Below are positions 2,053-31,983 of a DNA stretch of 34,932 nt, one piece after another. The position numbers and the translations under genes were made by a program. Below the pieces are notes generated by a model. The model did not search any database. It saw only the letters and a list, made by a program, of their open reading frames with translations, and was not told the DNA's origin. The stretch is from a virus, in the IMG/VR virus record IMGVR_UViG_3300001473_000016, positions 1 through 34,932 of that record; one strand, given 5' to 3'. The stretch's first letter is position 1; every line of letters begins with the position of its first letter.

Positions 2053-2110
2053 AAGCAATATCCTCGATAGTTTCCGAAGGGCAGGGGACGCTTCAGATCA
2101 TCGAGCCGCG

Positions 2111-2473
2111 CTAGAAGACGCCAAGGAATCTCGGTGCGGCACGCTTGATCGCCCGTGCATCCTCCTCCTCGCACCGCTCGTGGGTCTCGATTATGACCTC
2201 CTTCTCCTCAAACTCCTGATCCTTCGCCGCGGTTTGAGCGACCCCAAACACGCGCCAGCGATCGGCCAGATATTCGACGTAAAGGGTGTAGGCCTCGGTG
2301 TTTCGCTCAGCATTGGGTGCTGGCAGCAAGTCCGGCAATTTAGCCCCAGGCACGGGGTCCTTGAGCTGCTCGGGAATTTGGCCAGAGCAGCGAGCCTTGT
2401 CGGGTGTGATTGGTGGAGGGGTGAGGCAGCCAGCAAGGCAACATGCCAGCGCAACGATAGCTAGGTTCCGCAT
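2111..2473 (-). CDS. Putative outer-membrane spanin lipoprotein (Rz1-like)
   Basis: The product has 120 aa and starts at ATG 2473 (TAATG overlap with the stop of the upstream gene). The N-terminus is a lipoprotein signal: MRN, a hydrophobic run, and lipobox LAGC with the lipidated Cys at residue 16. Proline-rich TPPPIT follows at once, as in Rz1. The mature chain is longer than lambda Rz1 and has a charged helical C-terminal half. With the preceding membrane-anchored coiled-coil protein it would form a two-component spanin that fuses inner and outer membranes in the last step of lysis. The call rests on signal, order and neighbour. Confidence 0.65.
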   Translation of the reverse strand: MRNLAIVALACCLAGCLTPPPITPDKARCSGQIPEQLKDPVPGAKLPDLLPAPNAERNTEAYTLYVEYLADRWRVFGVAQTAAKDQEFEEKEVIIETHERCEEEDARAIKRAAPRFLGVF

Positions 2474-2823
2474 TATTCTTCCTCCGGGCAATAGGCTGGA
2501 TCAAGCTCGCACAGTGCCGCTGTAGCTATTGCCTCCTTTTCGGCTTGGGTTGGGGCTTGCGCGATTTCCACCTTCGTGGATTCGACGACGCTCCGACTTT
2601 GCTCGCGCGCTTCATCGAGCTCGGCGAGGTCATTGAAGGTCTCTTGTGCAGTTCGAACTGCGGCTCCGGCACGCTCGCTATCGATCTCGGCGATGACTTC
2701 GGCGTTGCCCACAACGAGATCGCGCACAAAGGTGAAGACGAGGACAACCAGCGCGACAGTGATCAATGCGCTGACGATGCGACCGAGCGGGGTCAGGCTC
2801 TTGAAGAACTTGATAACGGGCAT
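2473..2823 (-). CDS. Putative inner-membrane spanin (Rz-like)
   Basis: The product has 116 aa and starts at ATG 2823 (TGATG overlap with the desaturase gene). One N-terminal transmembrane helix (about residues 15-35, SALITVALVVLVFTFV) is followed by a long charged helical region rich in A, E, R and Q that should form a coiled coil in the periplasm. This is the topology of an i-spanin. It is directly followed by a lipoprotein gene, the usual o-spanin partner. The C-terminus has two cysteines (ALCELDPAYCPEEE), which could make a disulfide-linked dimer; that is inference. Confidence 0.65.
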   Translation of the reverse strand: MPVIKFFKSLTPLGRIVSALITVALVVLVFTFVRDLVVGNAEVIAEIDSERAGAAVRTAQETFNDLAELDEAREQSRSVVESTKVEIAQAPTQAEKEAIATAALCELDPAYCPEEE

Positions 2824-3353
2824 CAGACGGTCTCCTGCTTTGACACAGGACGGATTCCGATCAGCGCGAGACCGCGCTCCAGCCAATACCAGAACCGGAT
2901 CAACTCGAGCCATGGGTTCAGCCAGCCGGACAGGGTGCAGTAATGCGTCGTCATGCTGCCCCGGTGGTGGCGGGAATGCTGCGCCGGTCGCTGAAAGATG
3001 CCAGTCTCTTGCAAGGCAGAGATCCACGCAGGTCGATCAGTCTTGTGCGCCCAGGCATGGGTCTCGTTGGCAAGCGCGCCGCCTAGGGTTGCTGCAAGCC
3101 ACACCCAGGAGAAACCGAACGCAGCCAGCCAGGCGAGCGATATTGGGGCAACAGCCAACCAGGTGGTCCAGTTGCGATCGAAGAATGAGCTGGCGAGGAA
3201 TGCCTGCGGATCAGTGTGGTGCAATTCGTTGGGCGCACCCACCAGAGCACCTAGCAAGGGCGTGCTGCTGGTGATGAATTGGTCCTCGAACCAGTGAACG
3301 ACACCAGAGAGGAAGTCTGCGATCAGCCATCCGGCGAGAAGGAGCAGGATCAT
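2823..3353 (-). CDS. Kua/CarF/TMEM189-family lipid desaturase-like membrane protein
   Basis: The product has 176 aa. The start is ATG 3353: it overlaps the amidase stop as ATGA and has AAGGAG 7 bases upstream. The histidine-rich pattern of the plasmanylethanolamine desaturase family (PF10520) is recognisable: ADFLSGVVHW with H20, NELHHTDP with H45/H46, NETHAWAHK with H99/H103, QHSRHH with H126/H129/H130, then HYCTLSGWLNPWLE. Hydrophobic segments lie at about residues 1-12, 62-95 and 145-165. Family members use a di-iron-like His cluster to introduce the vinyl-ether bond of plasmalogens or for similar lipid desaturation. Here it is embedded in the lysis cassette between endolysin and spanins, so a membrane-modifying role during lysis or lysogeny is possible but unproven. 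Confidence 0.8.
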   Translation of the reverse strand: MILLLLAGWLIADFLSGVVHWFEDQFITSSTPLLGALVGAPNELHHTDPQAFLASSFFDRNWTTWLAVAPISLAWLAAFGFSWVWLAATLGGALANETHAWAHKTDRPAWISALQETGIFQRPAQHSRHHRGSMTTHYCTLSGWLNPWLELIRFWYWLERGLALIGIRPVSKQETV

Positions 3354-3946
3354 AGCGACACTCCTTCGATTGAGGCCCACCATTCGCCTGCATCAAAGCA
3401 GGGACAATCCTTGGCGACATTGGGGTGATCGCGGTGCCCAAGCACTTCAGCGAATGGATAGGCCTTGGTCAGGGCACCCACCAGGCGAGCCATGGCATCC
3501 TTCTGGGCGGCGGTCCTGGTGTCGGTGGACTTGCCATTCAAATCCAGGCCGCCCGCATATACAATCCCGATCGACCCTTGGTTGTGGTGGCGGACATGAA
3601 TACCGGTGACATTCTCGTCGAGCCCACGCTCGATCGTGCCATCAAGCCTGATCAGATAGTGATAGCCGACCCGGCTCCAGCCGCGCCCGCGGGGCTTGGG
3701 GTCAGTGTGCCAGCGCTCTACCTCTTCAATACTGACATCGCGCCCAATTCTGGTCGCGGTGCAATGGATGACGATGCGCTCGATGTTCTCGCCAGTACCC
3801 TGGACCAATGAGTCCGGCGCAACAGGAGGTGTGGCCTCACCCAACGCTTCGAGCGCCTTACGTGCAGTTTGTGGGCCGAACTTGCCGTCGACAGTGGCGC
3901 CGACGCGGCGCTGCAGCTGCCTGGTTAGATCGCGCAATTCAGACAT
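3350..3946 (-). CDS. Endolysin: N-acetylmuramoyl-L-alanine amidase (Amidase_2)
   Basis: The product has 198 aa. Residues 5-36 resemble a short peptidoglycan-binding repeat (LQRRVGATVDGKFGPQTARK). The catalytic domain follows from about residue 55: VIHCTAT with zinc ligand H61, GYHYLIRLDGT, GSIGIVYAGG, and GHRDHP...KDCPCFD with H171 and C181, as in T7 lysozyme. It cleaves the amide bond between MurNAc and the stem peptide. There is no signal peptide, so release should depend on the adjacent holin-type proteins. Its stop overlaps the start of the desaturase gene. A GGAG precedes the ATG. Confidence 0.9.
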   Translation of the reverse strand: MSELRDLTRQLQRRVGATVDGKFGPQTARKALEALGEATPPVAPDSLVQGTGENIERIVIHCTATRIGRDVSIEEVERWHTDPKPRGRGWSRVGYHYLIRLDGTIERGLDENVTGIHVRHHNQGSIGIVYAGGLDLNGKSTDTRTAAQKDAMARLVGALTKAYPFAEVLGHRDHPNVAKDCPCFDAGEWWASIEGVSL

Positions 3947-3998
3947 GGGGGATTCTCCTCATTTGCAAGGATTGAATGGGTTTCGGTTGTGGGGTCGG

Positions 3999-4274
3999 CT
4001 ATTTCAGTAGCGGGCAGGTCTCGCGGCGCTTGCGCCACACCCAAAGGAACGCGAAAACCAGCATCGCGACGTGAGCTGTGTCGAAGATCCAGCGGAACTG
4101 GGGGAGCATTGCCGGATCGAACCAGAACATCATGCGCCCTGTTCCAAACAGCATGACAGTGACGGCAAGCAGCCAGCACATCCAGCGATCAAGGCCGTCC
4201 CTGTCGATCGAGGCCGCATGCCAGAGCAGGACCAGCGATGCCGGGAGGTAGAGGATCCAGATCAATTCGATCAT
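3999..4274 (-). CDS. Small three-helix membrane protein in the lysis cassette
   Basis: The product has 91 aa and starts at ATG 4274 (ATGA overlap with the upstream holin-like gene). Three hydrophobic helices are visible: about residues 3-20 (LIWILYLPASLVLLW), 31-48 (WMCWLLAVTVMLFG) and 65-82 (TAHVAMLVFAFLWVW). The tail is basic (RKRRE). It could be a holin, an antiholin or a holin accessory protein. No specific family was recognised; the call follows size, topology and position immediately before the endolysin. Confidence 0.6.
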   Translation of the reverse strand: MIELIWILYLPASLVLLWHAASIDRDGLDRWMCWLLAVTVMLFGTGRMMFWFDPAMLPQFRWIFDTAHVAMLVFAFLWVWRKRRETCPLLK

Positions 4275-4639
4275 TGACCATCTCCTCGTTTCCAAGGCAG
4301 CGACATATTGCCACTCGCTGCGCGCCGCGCGAGCCATGGTGACGCAAGCCCGGCAACACCCATGACAAGTGGCAGGGGCAGGGCAGAGACCCAGCCGATC
4401 CATGCGCCGCCCGCGGCAAAGTGAGGATGCGCCATCCCGGCAAACGCGCCGATCACCATCGCGACGACGACAGTGAGAGGCAGCGTCAGACGCTCGGTTG
4501 GCGGACTCACGACCATACCGACAAAACCACCTGCCACGGCAAAGAACATGCCGGCGACGATGTAGGGCCAGGGTGCGGCAAAGCCGAGTGCTCCGGTGAT
4601 CAGCGCCATGTAGCCGCTGAACTTGGCTTCAGGTATCAA
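4271..4639 (-). CDS. Putative holin
   Basis: The product has 122 aa from a TTG start at 4639, which has GGAGAG 5 bases upstream. Three to four hydrophobic segments are visible (about residues 9-22, 24-46, 53-70 and 80-100), and the C-terminus is basic (ARRAASGN..LPWKRGDGQ). A holin would form inner-membrane lesions that release the signal-less endolysin. It is the first gene of the lysis cassette, after the tail fibre genes. The family was not recognised, so the function is from topology and gene order. Confidence 0.55.
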   Translation of the reverse strand: MIPEAKFSGYMALITGALGFAAPWPYIVAGMFFAVAGGFVGMVVSPPTERLTLPLTVVVAMVIGAFAGMAHPHFAAGGAWIGWVSALPLPLVMGVAGLASPWLARRAASGNMSLPWKRGDGQ

Positions 4640-4666
4640 CAGGACTCTCCAATGATGGTGCGACCG

Positions 4667-17146: not shown

Positions 17147-19210
17147 TTAGGCTCCAGGATCCTTGTAGGCCGAGCGGTGATTGAGCGCGCCAACGCCATA
17201 GTCGTGGCGAACTTTCCACTCGATGCCGTCAGTCCGGAAACCGTCGCGCATTTCGAGGAATGGCTGCTCGACACCGTCGAGGAAGACCACCTCAAAAGCC
17301 GGATTGAAGTTGGGGTCGCCCAGAGCATACCAAGCATTCCCCGTCAGGCGCGCTGTGTCGACGATGTCATCGAAGACTCCGCGAACCTTGTTGGGCTTCT
17401 GCAATTTGCTGGCGGTGTCGGGGTCGTAGACAGCATCGTTGATGACGCGAGCGTCACCGCCGAGACCGATCGGACCGAGCCAAACAGATGGGCGGATGTC
17501 CAAGACTTCGTTGCCGCTCACGTCTTTCTGGCTTGCCATGGAAACGCGGGCTGCATCGAACGATGCAACGCTTGGAGCTGCTCCAGCTGCGGCGAGGTTG
17601 CCATGGTCTGCGTGGAACATAGCTACCCCATCGTTGAGGGCCGGGTTGGCATCCAAGAGCGCGTAAGCATCGATTTCGATCGAAAGCCCAGCCGCACGGC
17701 CAAGCTCAGTCGCCAAGGTGCTGAAAGCATCGAGATCATCATTGACCATAGACTGACGCGAGAGGGCAATAATGTTGCCCTTGGTGCTCGCGCTGATCAG
17801 CTCTTTGACGCCGTCCGGGATCGTCTTGTTCTTGAACTCGCCCGTCTCGGTAACGTCATCGAGCTTACCGAAGCTGCCGCGTTGGATCCGAGGGTGCGGA
17901 CGGAAGTCACGCACGGACCCGACACCGCACCAACGGCGCCAAGTGTCAGGCACCACCGCATAAGAGGCCTGGAGCGACTTATGCATCGTGTTTTCGAGAA
18001 GAACCGCGAATGTGCTTGAGGATTGCATCACACTGCGGCCCTGCAGGCCAGTGCTGGCCAGAGCCATGGCGATGATCTCGTTGGGATCACGGGTGCGAAC
18101 CTTTGAGCCCTCAATGTCGAGAGCAGTCGCCGCAAGGTCGACCAGGCGCATTCCGCGGAATTGGCCCGGATCGAGATCATGCTTCTCGTTGGCCTTCTCG
18201 GCAGCGCGTTTCAGCGTACCACCAAGACCGGCCCGGAGAAGAATGGCGTTTCCGGCACCGCGCAAGAACTTTTCAGCCTCGTCGGTTCCGACCTGCACGG
18301 TCGTGCCGCCACGGATGTTTCCGGTTTCCTTCTGCTGGGCGTCAGCGGCGGATTTGAGCACGGCAGAGCGAGCTGACTCGATGCTGCGCTTGTCTTCGCT
18401 GACTTCCTTGACCAGCTCTTCTGCACGCTTGGCAACGTCCTCGCCAAACGCGCGGGCTTGATCAACGAATTCGAGTGCGGCGGTCGAGCTGAAGTCCGGG
18501 CCGTTAGAGCGGGTCTCAACATCGCCGGTGCGCTTCTCGGTCGAAGTCGTTGACGAGGTCTCAGTGCCTTCGCCAGTCGCTTCGCGGTTTTCACCAGACG
18601 GCGCGGCGCCGCCATTCTTCTTAGACATATCATCTTCCTTTTGGGTGTTGGCGCCAGGGCCAGTAGTCCGGGTCGAATTGTTTCCTGGTGCCGAGCGGAT
18701 CCCGGTTTCCGGATCGGCAGGAACGGGTACAAGGGAGACTTCCATCAGCTCCCAACGAGTGGCTTTGCGGGTTTCTGGCTGCTCGCCTTCAGCCTTGGTG
18801 ATTTCCCATTTGCGGATGGCGTATCCAATCGACACTCCCTTGATCTCACCGCGACTGACCATGCCTTCGGCCTCTCGGCCGGCATCAGTGTCGGCAAAGT
18901 TGAACTGGCCAACGAGGGCGTCGCCCTCGATCCGAACGTTGGTCACGGTGCCAAGAATCTTGTCGAGTTCCCAGCGGTCGTGGACGGCAAGCAGATTCAC
19001 GAGGCCGCTGGAGACGCGAGATAGGTCGATCGCGGCAGCACTGATTTCGAGCGACTCGACATAGCCCCAGCGCTGGACGGCAGTTCCCCTACTGAGGACA
19101 GCCTCAACGCTCCGAGACTCCTCATTGTAAGAGCCTGGCGTCAGCCCGGCCTGGCGATGCACGATTTCGCCGCCATCAGCTTTGGCTGAGGCGCTTTTCT
19201 TCTTGGCCAT
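17147..19210 (-). CDS. Prohead protease-major capsid protein fusion
   Basis: The product has 687 aa. Residues 15-170 are an HK97-type prohead protease: LLAVHDRW with candidate H77, FADTDAGREAEGMV, GEIKGVSIGY with candidate nucleophile S127, and ELMEVSLVPVPADP. A low-complexity linker follows (about 175-240). A coiled-coil scaffold-like delta domain is at about 240-285. The capsid fold runs to the end (GAGNAILLRAGLGG, FAVLLENTMHKSLQA, GLSIEIDAYALLD, DPNFNPAFEVVFLDG). In most phages the two parts are separate genes. The protease would cut scaffold regions, possibly releasing itself from capsid subunits. The start is ATG 19210 with an AGGAAA upstream. An internal start for free capsid protein cannot be ruled out. 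Confidence 0.85.
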   Translation of the reverse strand: MAKKKSASAKADGGEIVHRQAGLTPGSYNEESRSVEAVLSRGTAVQRWGYVESLEISAAAIDLSRVSSGLVNLLAVHDRWELDKILGTVTNVRIEGDALVGQFNFADTDAGREAEGMVSRGEIKGVSIGYAIRKWEITKAEGEQPETRKATRWELMEVSLVPVPADPETGIRSAPGNNSTRTTGPGANTQKEDDMSKKNGGAAPSGENREATGEGTETSSTTSTEKRTGDVETRSNGPDFSSTAALEFVDQARAFGEDVAKRAEELVKEVSEDKRSIESARSAVLKSAADAQQKETGNIRGGTTVQVGTDEAEKFLRGAGNAILLRAGLGGTLKRAAEKANEKHDLDPGQFRGMRLVDLAATALDIEGSKVRTRDPNEIIAMALASTGLQGRSVMQSSSTFAVLLENTMHKSLQASYAVVPDTWRRWCGVGSVRDFRPHPRIQRGSFGKLDDVTETGEFKNKTIPDGVKELISASTKGNIIALSRQSMVNDDLDAFSTLATELGRAAGLSIEIDAYALLDANPALNDGVAMFHADHGNLAAAGAAPSVASFDAARVSMASQKDVSGNEVLDIRPSVWLGPIGLGGDARVINDAVYDPDTASKLQKPNKVRGVFDDIVDTARLTGNAWYALGDPNFNPAFEVVFLDGVEQPFLEMRDGFRTDGIEWKVRHDYGVGALNHRSAYKDPGA

Positions 19211-30242: not shown

Positions 30243-30448
30243 GCGCCAAAGATCCCGCGCTTTTTGCACGCGCGCCTATGCATTCGGATGAACGCATGTT
30301 TCGCCACGGTCCAGTGCGACCGATGAGCGAGCCGGTCGAAGACGACACCGACATGCTGATCAGTGTGGTGGTCCTGTTTGCGATCGCGTTGACGGTGTTC
30401 TTGATCGGCTTTGCGGTCGGCTTTGGAGTTGGTTGGTTATCCCAATGA
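30239..30448 (+). CDS. Small C-terminally anchored membrane protein
   Basis: The product has 69 aa. Its first 40 residues are hydrophilic (RAPMHSDERMFRHGPVRP); residues 40-66 are a transmembrane helix with a glycine zipper-like end (LISVVVLFAIALTVFLIG, FAVGFGVGWL). Start and stop overlap the neighbours by 4 bases. Family unknown. With the preceding microprotein it could form a membrane complex; this is inference from adjacency. Confidence 0.6.
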   Translation: MSAKDPALFARAPMHSDERMFRHGPVRPMSEPVEDDTDMLISVVVLFAIALTVFLIGFAVGFGVGWLSQ

Positions 30449-31983
30449 CTAACAAGCAACCCACACCACAAGCGTTAGCGGACTGCCCGTTTTGCACAAA
30501 CAGGGAGTTCCCGCCCGTATTGACCGAAGATAAATCAGGTCACGTTGTCATCTGCACTGCCTGCAGCGCACTAGGCCCAACTCGCCGCTCAGCACCAGAG
30601 GCGGCCGCTGCATGGAATAATCGCGCCAACGCGGCGCCTGTGTCTTGCGGCATGGGGGTAGGATGCGAGGAGGCGGGCACATGCTACGCTAGCGCGCACG
30701 ACGAACCTGAGCGCTGCCCACTCTACGCAGGCCGACCGCCTGAGGTGGGGGAGGATAACAAGACAGATCAACGTGCACAGCAAATGACAGAGCTTGTTTC
30801 CGACATGCTTTGGGGTGGAGAGCATGGATGGGAAAGCGCGACCGATGAGCAATTCAAAGAGCTGACGAAAGCGGCCAGAAAACGCTTAAGCACCACACCA
30901 TCCCCAGCACCAGCGGAAGGCCTCAAAATCATGCCCCCGCCAGCGGCGATAGAGGACGGTGACTATCTTGAAGGCTGGATAGAGGGGCAGCGCTACCTAA
31001 TCGAGAACACGACTGGAAAGGACCTAGACGAGTCCACACCATCCCTAGCACCAGCGGAAGGGCTGGCAGCAATGGTCGCGCTCGATGAGGAGCTTGAGGC
31101 CAAACATCCCGGTTGGATGGATGGAAGTGCAGTGCCGACGGACATTCATCTGATTGTGAAGGCGCTTCAAATGGATGAGAACGATGACACCCGACAGCGC
31201 GGCTATGAGCTTGAGGGCAAGCTGGATCGTTTGTTTGCCACACCATCCCCAGCACCAGCGACAGACTGGGCAGCAGAGGTCGCCAAGGCACAGGAGGCCG
31301 GTCTCGACCATTCAACCATGCTCAACCATTTGGGCGCGATGGTCCTAGACCACGTGAAGTATGGGGCCGTTCCAGCACCAGCGGAAGGGTTGGCAGAGCG
31401 GAAACAGTTCCCAATTCTGCATGGCGGGGGAGCAACGGTCGATTGGCAATTCCTGCAAGACATCGCTGGACGGCAAATCGAGCTTAATCACGGGCGGCAA
31501 TCGCTTGGCACGCTGGCTCGACGTGGTGGTCTGACGTGGGACGAAATTCTCGCCGCCCTAAGGGGTGAGCGCGACCTGTCTGACAATAGGGGAGAGTACG
31601 AGAACACCTTGTTGGTTCGCCAGCAAGAGCAGGCTTTTGTCCAAACCCTAGCACCCGATGCGATCACTGGCGCATGGCGTCCGATGGAGGCTTGGGAGGA
31701 ACACCCAACCAAGGACGATATCGTCCTGCTGTTGGTGGACTACAGCAATGGCGACAACCCACTCGAAGATGCGACGATTGCATGGACGATTGGCAGCAAT
31801 AACGATCACAATGTTGGCCCAGATGAAGCGGAGGGATGGAAATTCGCTGGCTGGAGCTGGAGCCACGATTTCTACTGCGAGGGCAGGGGGCAACCGATTG
31901 GCTGGATGCCGGTGGATGTGGACTCGCGCGGGAATGCGCCTGTCAGCGCGCCTCGCGGACACGGCAGCCTCGGAGAACCCTGA
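30445..31983 (+). CDS. Mosaic multi-module protein (Lar-like zinc finger N-terminus)
   Basis: The product has 512 aa from ATG 30445 (ATGA overlap; TTG 30433 is an alternative). Residues 14-55 resemble Lar-type restriction alleviation zinc ribbons (CPFCTNREFPPV, VVICTACSALGP..AAAAWNNRA). Another Cys-rich bit follows (GCEEAGTCYAS..ERCPLY). Four near-identical linkers, PSPAPAEGL or variants, separate modules at about residues 151, 198, 266 and 310. The C-terminus (about 415-495) ends with PIGWMPV, as in the DUF551-type phage module (AWRPMEAW...). Function unknown; the modules look recombined. Confidence 0.6.
   Translation: MTNKQPTPQALADCPFCTNREFPPVLTEDKSGHVVICTACSALGPTRRSAPEAAAAWNNRANAAPVSCGMGVGCEEAGTCYASAHDEPERCPLYAGRPPEVGEDNKTDQRAQQMTELVSDMLWGGEHGWESATDEQFKELTKAARKRLSTTPSPAPAEGLKIMPPPAAIEDGDYLEGWIEGQRYLIENTTGKDLDESTPSLAPAEGLAAMVALDEELEAKHPGWMDGSAVPTDIHLIVKALQMDENDDTRQRGYELEGKLDRLFATPSPAPATDWAAEVAKAQEAGLDHSTMLNHLGAMVLDHVKYGAVPAPAEGLAERKQFPILHGGGATVDWQFLQDIAGRQIELNHGRQSLGTLARRGGLTWDEILAALRGERDLSDNRGEYENTLLVRQQEQAFVQTLAPDAITGAWRPMEAWEEHPTKDDIVLLLVDYSNGDNPLEDATIAWTIGSNNDHNVGPDEAEGWKFAGWSWSHDFYCEGRGQPIGWMPVDVDSRGNAPVSAPRGHGSLGEP
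30893..31388 (+). repeat. Dispersed linker repeat in the mosaic gene
   Basis: Copies of CACACCATCCCCAGCACCAG with GCGGAAGG occur at 30893-30920, 31034-31061 (one change), 31238-31260 (shorter) and 31373-31388 (core CAGCACCAGCGGAAGG). They encode the PAPAEGL-type linkers and are in frame. They could be sites of homologous module exchange. Confidence 0.8.

What the first reader, a model, noticed from the sequence alone, without database searches (positions are those of the whole stretch)
2823..3353. Kua/CarF-type lipid desaturase inside the lysis cassette
A 176-aa membrane protein with the His pattern of plasmanylethanolamine desaturases (HHTD, NETHAWAHK, HSRHH, YCTLSGWLN) overlaps both endolysin and spanin genes. 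Known families of lysis genes do not include lipid-modifying oxidases. It might alter membrane lipids for holin or spanin action, protect against singlet oxygen, or modify host lipids during lysogeny. The tight overlap suggests it is expressed with lysis.
Basis: partly seen in the sequence, partly recalled or inferred. Interest (0 to 1): 0.75.

Follow-up and report, generated by a model that had tools for sequence, protein, structure and literature searches.

The report
Lipid desaturase inside phage lysis operon
A temperate phage carries, wedged between its cell-wall-cutting enzyme and its membrane-rupturing proteins, a gene for an enzyme that probably alters membrane lipids; relatives form phage-only branches among the sequences sampled and sit in late-gene operons of many phages, which suggests that some phages remodel host lipids late in infection.

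Summary
Window 2823-3353 (-) encodes a 176-aa PF10520 (Lipid_desat) protein (E 5.7e-38). It overlaps the amidase endolysin by 4 bp and the Rz-like spanin gene by 1 bp. All 8 family histidines and the essential Asp are present; AlphaFold2 pLDDT is 93. The six-gene block TM122-TM91-amidase-desaturase-Rz-Rz1 (2110-4666) is the only gene-scale DNA shared (80%) with an otherwise unrelated phage, and within it the desaturase is under purifying selection (dN/dS 0.07). A different cassette (holin-lysozyme-Rz-Rz1-desaturase, L056) also carries it. So the gene belongs to lysis operons, at least twice.

Corrections: it is not a CarF/PEDS1-type enzyme. The PEDS1-specific His (mouse H131) is Ser, F118 is Asn, and the CarF model scores 87 bits against a cut-off of 500. 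Nor is the gene tied to lysis: in other phages relatives sit among tail, head-tail, portal or terminase genes, or behind a secreted protease, and direct lysis adjacency (2 of 8 alphaproteobacterial-type contexts) is not above chance. Best reading: a late-expressed, phage-resident phospholipid desaturase of unproven substrate, part of some lysis operons. I found no description of phage PF10520 in the papers searched.

The parts
2823..3353 (-). PF10520 lipid desaturase, 176 aa, 8 conserved His (H20, H45, H46, H99, H103, H126, H129, H130) and D24
   Evidence: PF10520 E 5.7e-38; 8 His and Asp invariant in 35 sequences; AlphaFold2 pLDDT 93.4
3350..3946 (-). Amidase_2 endolysin, 198 aa; overlaps the desaturase start by 4 bp
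   Evidence: PF01510 E 3.9e-18, phrog_822 lysis E 4.8e-55; junction
2473..2823 (-). Rz-like inner-membrane spanin candidate, 116 aa; overlaps the desaturase stop by 1 bp
   Evidence: N-terminal hydrophobic segment; phrog_214 Rz-like spanin E 0.025, weak
2111..2473 (-). Rz1-like lipoprotein, outer-membrane spanin candidate, 120 aa
   Evidence: Lipobox LAGC by eye and position after the Rz-like gene; no HMM hit
3999..4274 (-). 91-aa membrane protein, holin candidate by position only
   Evidence: 93% identical in L001; no convincing family hit
4271..4639 (-). 122-aa membrane protein, holin candidate by position only
   Evidence: 98% identical in L001, dN/dS 0.004
2110..4666 (-). Exchange module: six-gene block shared at 80% DNA identity with an otherwise unrelated phage (G010)
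   Evidence: blastn of the window against G010 and against L006/L007

Best explanation
The gene encodes a membrane-embedded, O2-dependent, probably di-iron lipid desaturase of the PF10520 family, in a bacterial/phage subgroup that is neither PEDS1 nor FAD4. It is probably made late in the lytic cycle from the lysis operon, coupled to endolysin and spanin. I infer that it introduces a double bond into chains of host inner-membrane glycerophospholipids (FAD4-like on phosphatidylglycerol, or on phosphatidylethanolamine), using host electron donors, and so changes membrane packing in the last phase of infection. In this cassette the likeliest benefit is to tune when or how easily the membranes yield to holin and spanins. 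Shown: family, catalytic residues, operon structure, exchange of the cassette as a unit, purifying selection, recurrence in phages. Inferred: activity, substrate, timing, effect on lysis.
For: PF10520 match over its cut-off; all 8 essential His and Asp24 in 35 of 35 sequences; confident model whose best PDB relative in the VIA second look is the di-metal hydroxylase Scs7p, Z 7.5 against 3.0 for the next entry; overlaps with endolysin and spanin genes kept in L001, dN/dS 0.067; six-gene block is the only gene-scale DNA shared with phage G010; independent holin-lysozyme-Rz-Rz1-desaturase operon in L056; endolysin a few genes upstream in L053-55 and L061-63.
Against: No activity or lipid data. 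Close relatives lie in tail, head-tail and portal regions without detected lysis genes; direct lysis adjacency in 2 of 8 contexts is not above an assumed background. The spanins of this cassette are weakly supported and its holin only by position. No electron-transfer partner was identified in the cassette.
Confidence: 0.45

Rival explanations
1. A late-expressed lipid-modifying auxiliary gene with no specific lysis role: it remodels the host membrane during late infection (fluidity, respiration, virion assembly) and merely landed in the lysis operon, as relatives did among tail and head genes elsewhere.
For: Relatives of the same clade sit among Mu-like tail genes, head-tail genes and next to portal or terminase, mostly with 4-bp overlaps; L059 and L061-63 carry close copies in different positions; phage desaturases of another type are proposed to adjust host membranes (PMC7300359).
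Against: The gene is kept inside two different lysis cassettes, and one of these moves between unrelated phages with the desaturase inside it.
Confidence: 0.35
2. Superinfection exclusion or counter-defence: altered lipids late in infection block entry of other phages or disarm a membrane-acting host defence.
For: Single small gene, mobile between late operons; general precedent for membrane morons is from my own knowledge.
Against: No defence-related neighbour was seen in the contexts read; late timing suits exclusion poorly.
Confidence: 0.1
3. CarF/PEDS1-like enzyme that makes vinyl-ether lipids as protection against, or signal of, singlet oxygen.
For: Same Pfam family; NF045946 PlasmethDesatCarF match E 1.6e-24.
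Against: Score 87 bits against a cut-off of 500; the ninth His (mouse H131) is Ser55 and F118 is Asn42; alphaproteobacterial homologues lack that His and do not complement carF (PMC9131029).
Confidence: 0.05
4. Lysogenic conversion: the prophage gene modifies lipids of the lysogen.
For: The phage is temperate: integrase and S24 repressor.
Against: One promoter-like site was found in the region, as many as in shuffles, and on the other strand; start and stop are embedded in lysis genes.
Confidence: 0.05

Closest known systems
PEDS1/TMEM189/CarF plasmanylethanolamine desaturase (PF10520)
   Same: Family, eight essential His, Asp equivalent to mouse D100
   Different: Lacks the PEDS1 ninth His (H131) and F118; far below the CarF equivalog cut-off; much shorter
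Plant FAD4 phosphatidylglycerol delta-3-trans desaturase (PF10520)
   Same: Family, eight His; lack of the ninth His; its substrate class occurs in bacteria
   Different: Phe conserved in FAD4 and PEDS1 is Asn here; substrate untested
Uncharacterised bacterial PF10520 proteins (Bacteroidota, Burkholderiales, some Alphaproteobacteria)
   Same: Same catalytic set, many with the Asn at position 42
   Different: Chromosomal context where read, no lysis genes; the sampled copies fall outside the two main phage clades
Viral fatty acid desaturases (cyanophages; Arctic brine viruses, PMC7300359)
   Same: Phage-encoded membrane desaturases proposed to alter host lipids
   Different: Compared there with stearoyl-CoA-desaturase-type enzymes and cyanobacterial FADs, a different family arrangement; not described as lysis-operon genes in the passages read
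Scs7p sphingolipid hydroxylase (PDB 4zr0/4zr1)
   Same: Best PDB fold match (Z 7.5 over 147 residues); weak FA_hydroxylase match E 2.9e-05, below cut-off
   Different: 14-16% identity; a hydroxylase; other substrate

Membership tests
PF10520 Lipid_desat | Profile match above the curated cut-off | tested here: met
   131.1 bits against 26.4, model positions 1-172 of 175
PF10520 Lipid_desat | Eight conserved His and the Asp equivalent to mouse D100 | tested here: met
   Invariant in 35 of 35 sequences; essential in PEDS1 (PMC8960569)
PF10520 Lipid_desat | Di-metal membrane fold | tested here: inconclusive
   pLDDT 93.4; Scs7p first at Z 7.5, under the caution level; metal ligand distances not measured
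PEDS1/CarF | Ninth His (mouse H131, M. xanthus H113) | tested here: not met
   Ser55 at the equivalent spacing from the HH pair
PEDS1/CarF | Phe118 | tested here: not met
   Asn42; Asn in 34 of 35
PEDS1/CarF | NF045946 equivalog cut-off | tested here: not met
   86.8 bits against 500
PEDS1/CarF | Forms vinyl-ether lipid | not testable with these tools
   needs an assay
FAD4 | Phe shared by FAD4 and PEDS1 at position 118 | tested here: not met
   Asn42
FAD4 | Desaturates phosphatidylglycerol at delta-3 trans | not testable with these tools
   needs lipid analysis
Phage lysis proteins | Gene embedded in a lysis cassette | tested here: met
   Window and L001; L056
Phage lysis proteins | Sequence match to a holin, endolysin or spanin family | tested here: not met
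   No PHROG at E 0.1 or better
Phage lysis proteins | Needed for, or alters, lysis | not testable with these tools
   needs a deletion

The most novel reading that the evidence does not exclude
Some phages encode an enzymatic lipid-modifying step of lysis: a desaturase made together with endolysin and spanins that conditions the host membranes for rupture, from a phage-resident PF10520 lineage that also serves other late functions and, in planctomycete-like phages, pairs with secreted proteases.
Probability: 0.25. Interest if true: 0.85.

Novelty: new variant of a known kind. Interest (0 to 1): 0.6.

Why it matters
Lysis is usually described in terms of holins, endolysins and spanins that act on membranes and wall as given; a late lipid-modifying enzyme would mean that the phage also prepares the membrane. 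The finding also shows phage-resident branches of a family known chiefly from plasmalogen synthesis and chloroplast phosphatidylglycerol, and gives short, well-conserved proteins on which the uncharacterised bacterial branch could be assayed.

Tried and rejected
(1) Searching for more copies of the cassette by its other genes (amidase, TM91, Rz) returned only the two contigs already known. (2) Plasmids: no match. (3) PDB sequence search: none; Foldseek gave nothing at E 0.001; only the VIA second look singles out Scs7p. (4) Host origin: PF10520 in 5 of 398 Pseudomonadota genomes, one of them the centre genome already known to carry it, and an A3 profile match in 4 of 289 genomes of the class of G122, again including the centre; none of the host copies falls inside the two main phage clades. 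Only one host neighbourhood was read at length (L092); the others are short stretches. Host sampling is thin, so a host donor is not excluded. (5) Enrichment of lysis adjacency: 2 of 8 contexts, not significant under an assumed 8-15% background. (6) The 132-190-309-desaturase-76 block of L013/L029 looked like another lysis cassette, but only weak hits were found (Thioredoxin_2 E 0.04, Rz-like spanin E 0.13); left open. (7) Literature: no paper with PF10520 and phage; the three papers with plasmanylethanolamine desaturase and phage concern other subjects by title and abstract; of 18 papers with spanin and desaturase, the 10 listed are unrelated by title.

Full report
OBSERVATION. The ORF at 2823-3353 (-) is real: 176 aa with the quoted motifs and a full-length PF10520 Lipid_desat match, E 5.7e-38 and 131 bits against a cut-off of 26.4. 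A longer reading from an ATG at 3383 exists, but the 3353 start has a GGAG just upstream and overlaps the amidase stop by 4 bp; the stop overlaps the next start by 1 bp (TGATG), again preceded by GGAG. Both junctions are kept in the 92-93%-identical relative L001.

SURROUNDINGS. The window is a 34.9-kb IMG/VR virus record. The phage is temperate: integrase, S24-type repressor, GpA-type terminase, capsid protein fused to an S78 prohead protease. On the late strand the order is TM122, TM91, Amidase_2 endolysin, desaturase, Rz-like, Rz1-like lipoprotein. The endolysin is certain. The spanin pair rests on architecture plus one weak HMM hit (phrog_214, E 0.025), and the holin on position alone.

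THE CASSETTE MOVES AS A UNIT. Against contig G010 (source of L001/L006) the only gene-scale DNA similarity is window 2110-4666, 80% over 2568 bp, bounded by the ends of the six-gene block; apart from short repeats near 30.4-31.4 kb the rest is unrelated at DNA level, with only scattered short translated matches. Across this block dN/dS is 0.004 (TM122), 0.027 (TM91), 0.149 (amidase), 0.067 (desaturase), 0.168 (Rz) and 0.145 (Rz1) (several dS values are near saturation, so these are rough). The desaturase is thus a maintained member of the block and not decaying cargo. L006 and L007 are identical over the 8.2 kb compared, so this is one comparison and not two.

OTHER PHAGES. Two profile scans of IMG/VR gave 39 and 45 loci, overlapping; two annotated phage records also match. 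I called genes around them with a simple script of my own, so exact starts are approximate. Sorted by hand, eight alphaproteobacterial-type contexts result. (i) The window cassette. (ii) L056: holin, lysozyme, Rz-like, Rz1-like lipoprotein, desaturase, with a 4-bp overlap to the Rz1-like gene: an independent lysis cassette with another endolysin and another position. (iii) L053-55: a GH108-like endolysin by its sequence, Rz-like, Rz1-like, fibre, two small membrane proteins, desaturase, then terminase genes by position. (iv) L061-63: GH108 or lysozyme endolysin, spanin-like and membrane genes, desaturase, TerS. (v) Mu-like tail region, L008/9/57/58/60. (vi, vii) Head-tail region, L010 and L059. 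(viii) PhoH/portal region, L004/L027. For contexts v-viii no lysis family was among the 25 of 36 PHROG families shown for 34 neighbours. A separate group of phages, which I take to be planctomycete-like, has the gene directly downstream of a predicted secreted Trypsin_2 protease in at least five lineages.

IS LYSIS ADJACENCY SPECIAL? Two of eight contexts touch lysis genes directly. With an assumed 8-15% chance per random insertion this has P 0.13-0.34. What does recur is insertion into late operons, often with 4-bp overlaps. I therefore do not claim that the family is a lysis family, only that in two cassettes it is an integral lysis-operon gene.

FAMILY PLACE. All 35 aligned phage and bacterial sequences keep the eight His and Asp24. 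In PEDS1 the eight His and D100 are essential, F118A leaves 6% activity, and H131 is conserved in PEDS1 but not in FAD4 (PMC8960569). By spacing from the HH pair, F118 corresponds to N42 and H131 to S55 in the window protein; N42 is kept in 34 of 35. I did not align a PEDS1 sequence directly. The CarF equivalog model gives 87 bits against 500. The review PMC9131029 reports that alphaproteobacterial homologues lack the ninth His and do not complement carF. The label should be 'PF10520 desaturase, substrate unknown', not plasmanylethanolamine desaturase.

STRUCTURE. AlphaFold2 on an alignment of 32 relatives gives pLDDT 93.4 and pTM 0.87. Foldseek finds no PDB match at E 0.001; the VIA second look puts the di-metal hydroxylase Scs7p first, Z 7.5 over 147 residues, the next entry at 3.0. 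In BFVD the top hit is a giant-virus lipid desaturase domain protein, E 9.1e-07. The caution printed with the tool applies: Z under 8 alone is not proof for a helical protein. I could not measure metal-ligand distances.

ORIGIN. In the tree the phage sequences form two main clades, 17 rows at 99/95 and 14 rows at 94/95, without sampled host members; three other phage rows lie elsewhere. Hosts rarely carry the family: 5 of 398 Pseudomonadota genomes including the centre genome. This points to long-resident phage lineages, though host sampling was limited, and a single origin is neither shown nor ruled out.

MECHANISM. The best-supported reading is a late lipid desaturase acting on host phospholipids. 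FAD4, the characterised family member without the ninth His, acts on phosphatidylglycerol, a common bacterial lipid; this is an analogy only, because the Phe shared by FAD4 and PEDS1 is also absent here. Co-expression with endolysin and spanin would place the activity shortly before lysis, where altered packing could tune holin triggering or spanin-driven membrane fusion. The main rival is general late membrane remodelling without a lysis role; the present data do not separate the two well.

NOVELTY. Phage desaturases of another type are known (PMC7300359). I found no paper on PF10520 in phages, and no PHROG matches the protein; the library leaves out most subscription papers, so an existing description could have been missed.

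Noticed in passing
window 30433-31983 (+): A 516-aa ORF holds repeated linkers (TPSPAPAEGL-like; 46-nt copies at 30893, 31034, 31238). Short copies 92-100% identical over 24-40 bp occur in the otherwise unrelated phage G010, L085 about 2100-2800.
   Followed up: partly
L011:4877-6007, L017:2951-4054, L025:4577-5941, L028:4513-5784, L037:4786-5919: In planctomycete-like phages a predicted secreted Trypsin_2 protease lies directly upstream of the desaturase in at least five lineages. Why these two are paired is unexplained.
   Followed up: partly
L013:3931-6731 and L029:3891-6719: Block of a 132-148-aa protein, a secreted 190-aa protein that looks like a Cys protease by eye, a membrane protein with a weak thioredoxin hit, the desaturase and a small coiled-coil protein; might be an unrecognised lysis or envelope module.
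   Followed up: partly
L005:5989-6447 (LR756511, 595-kb phage): The desaturase of this huge phage has Phe and His at the two PEDS1-diagnostic positions, unlike the other phage copies; it may be closer to PEDS1 in function.
   Followed up: no
L004:2337-2873 (Erythrobacter phage vB_EliS-L02): Protein UIS25202.1, annotated hypothetical, is a relative of the window protein at 44% identity, between the PhoH and portal genes.
   Followed up: partly
window 17147-19210 (-): The capsid protein is fused to a prohead serine protease in one 687-aa ORF (PF04586 and PF25209).
   Followed up: no
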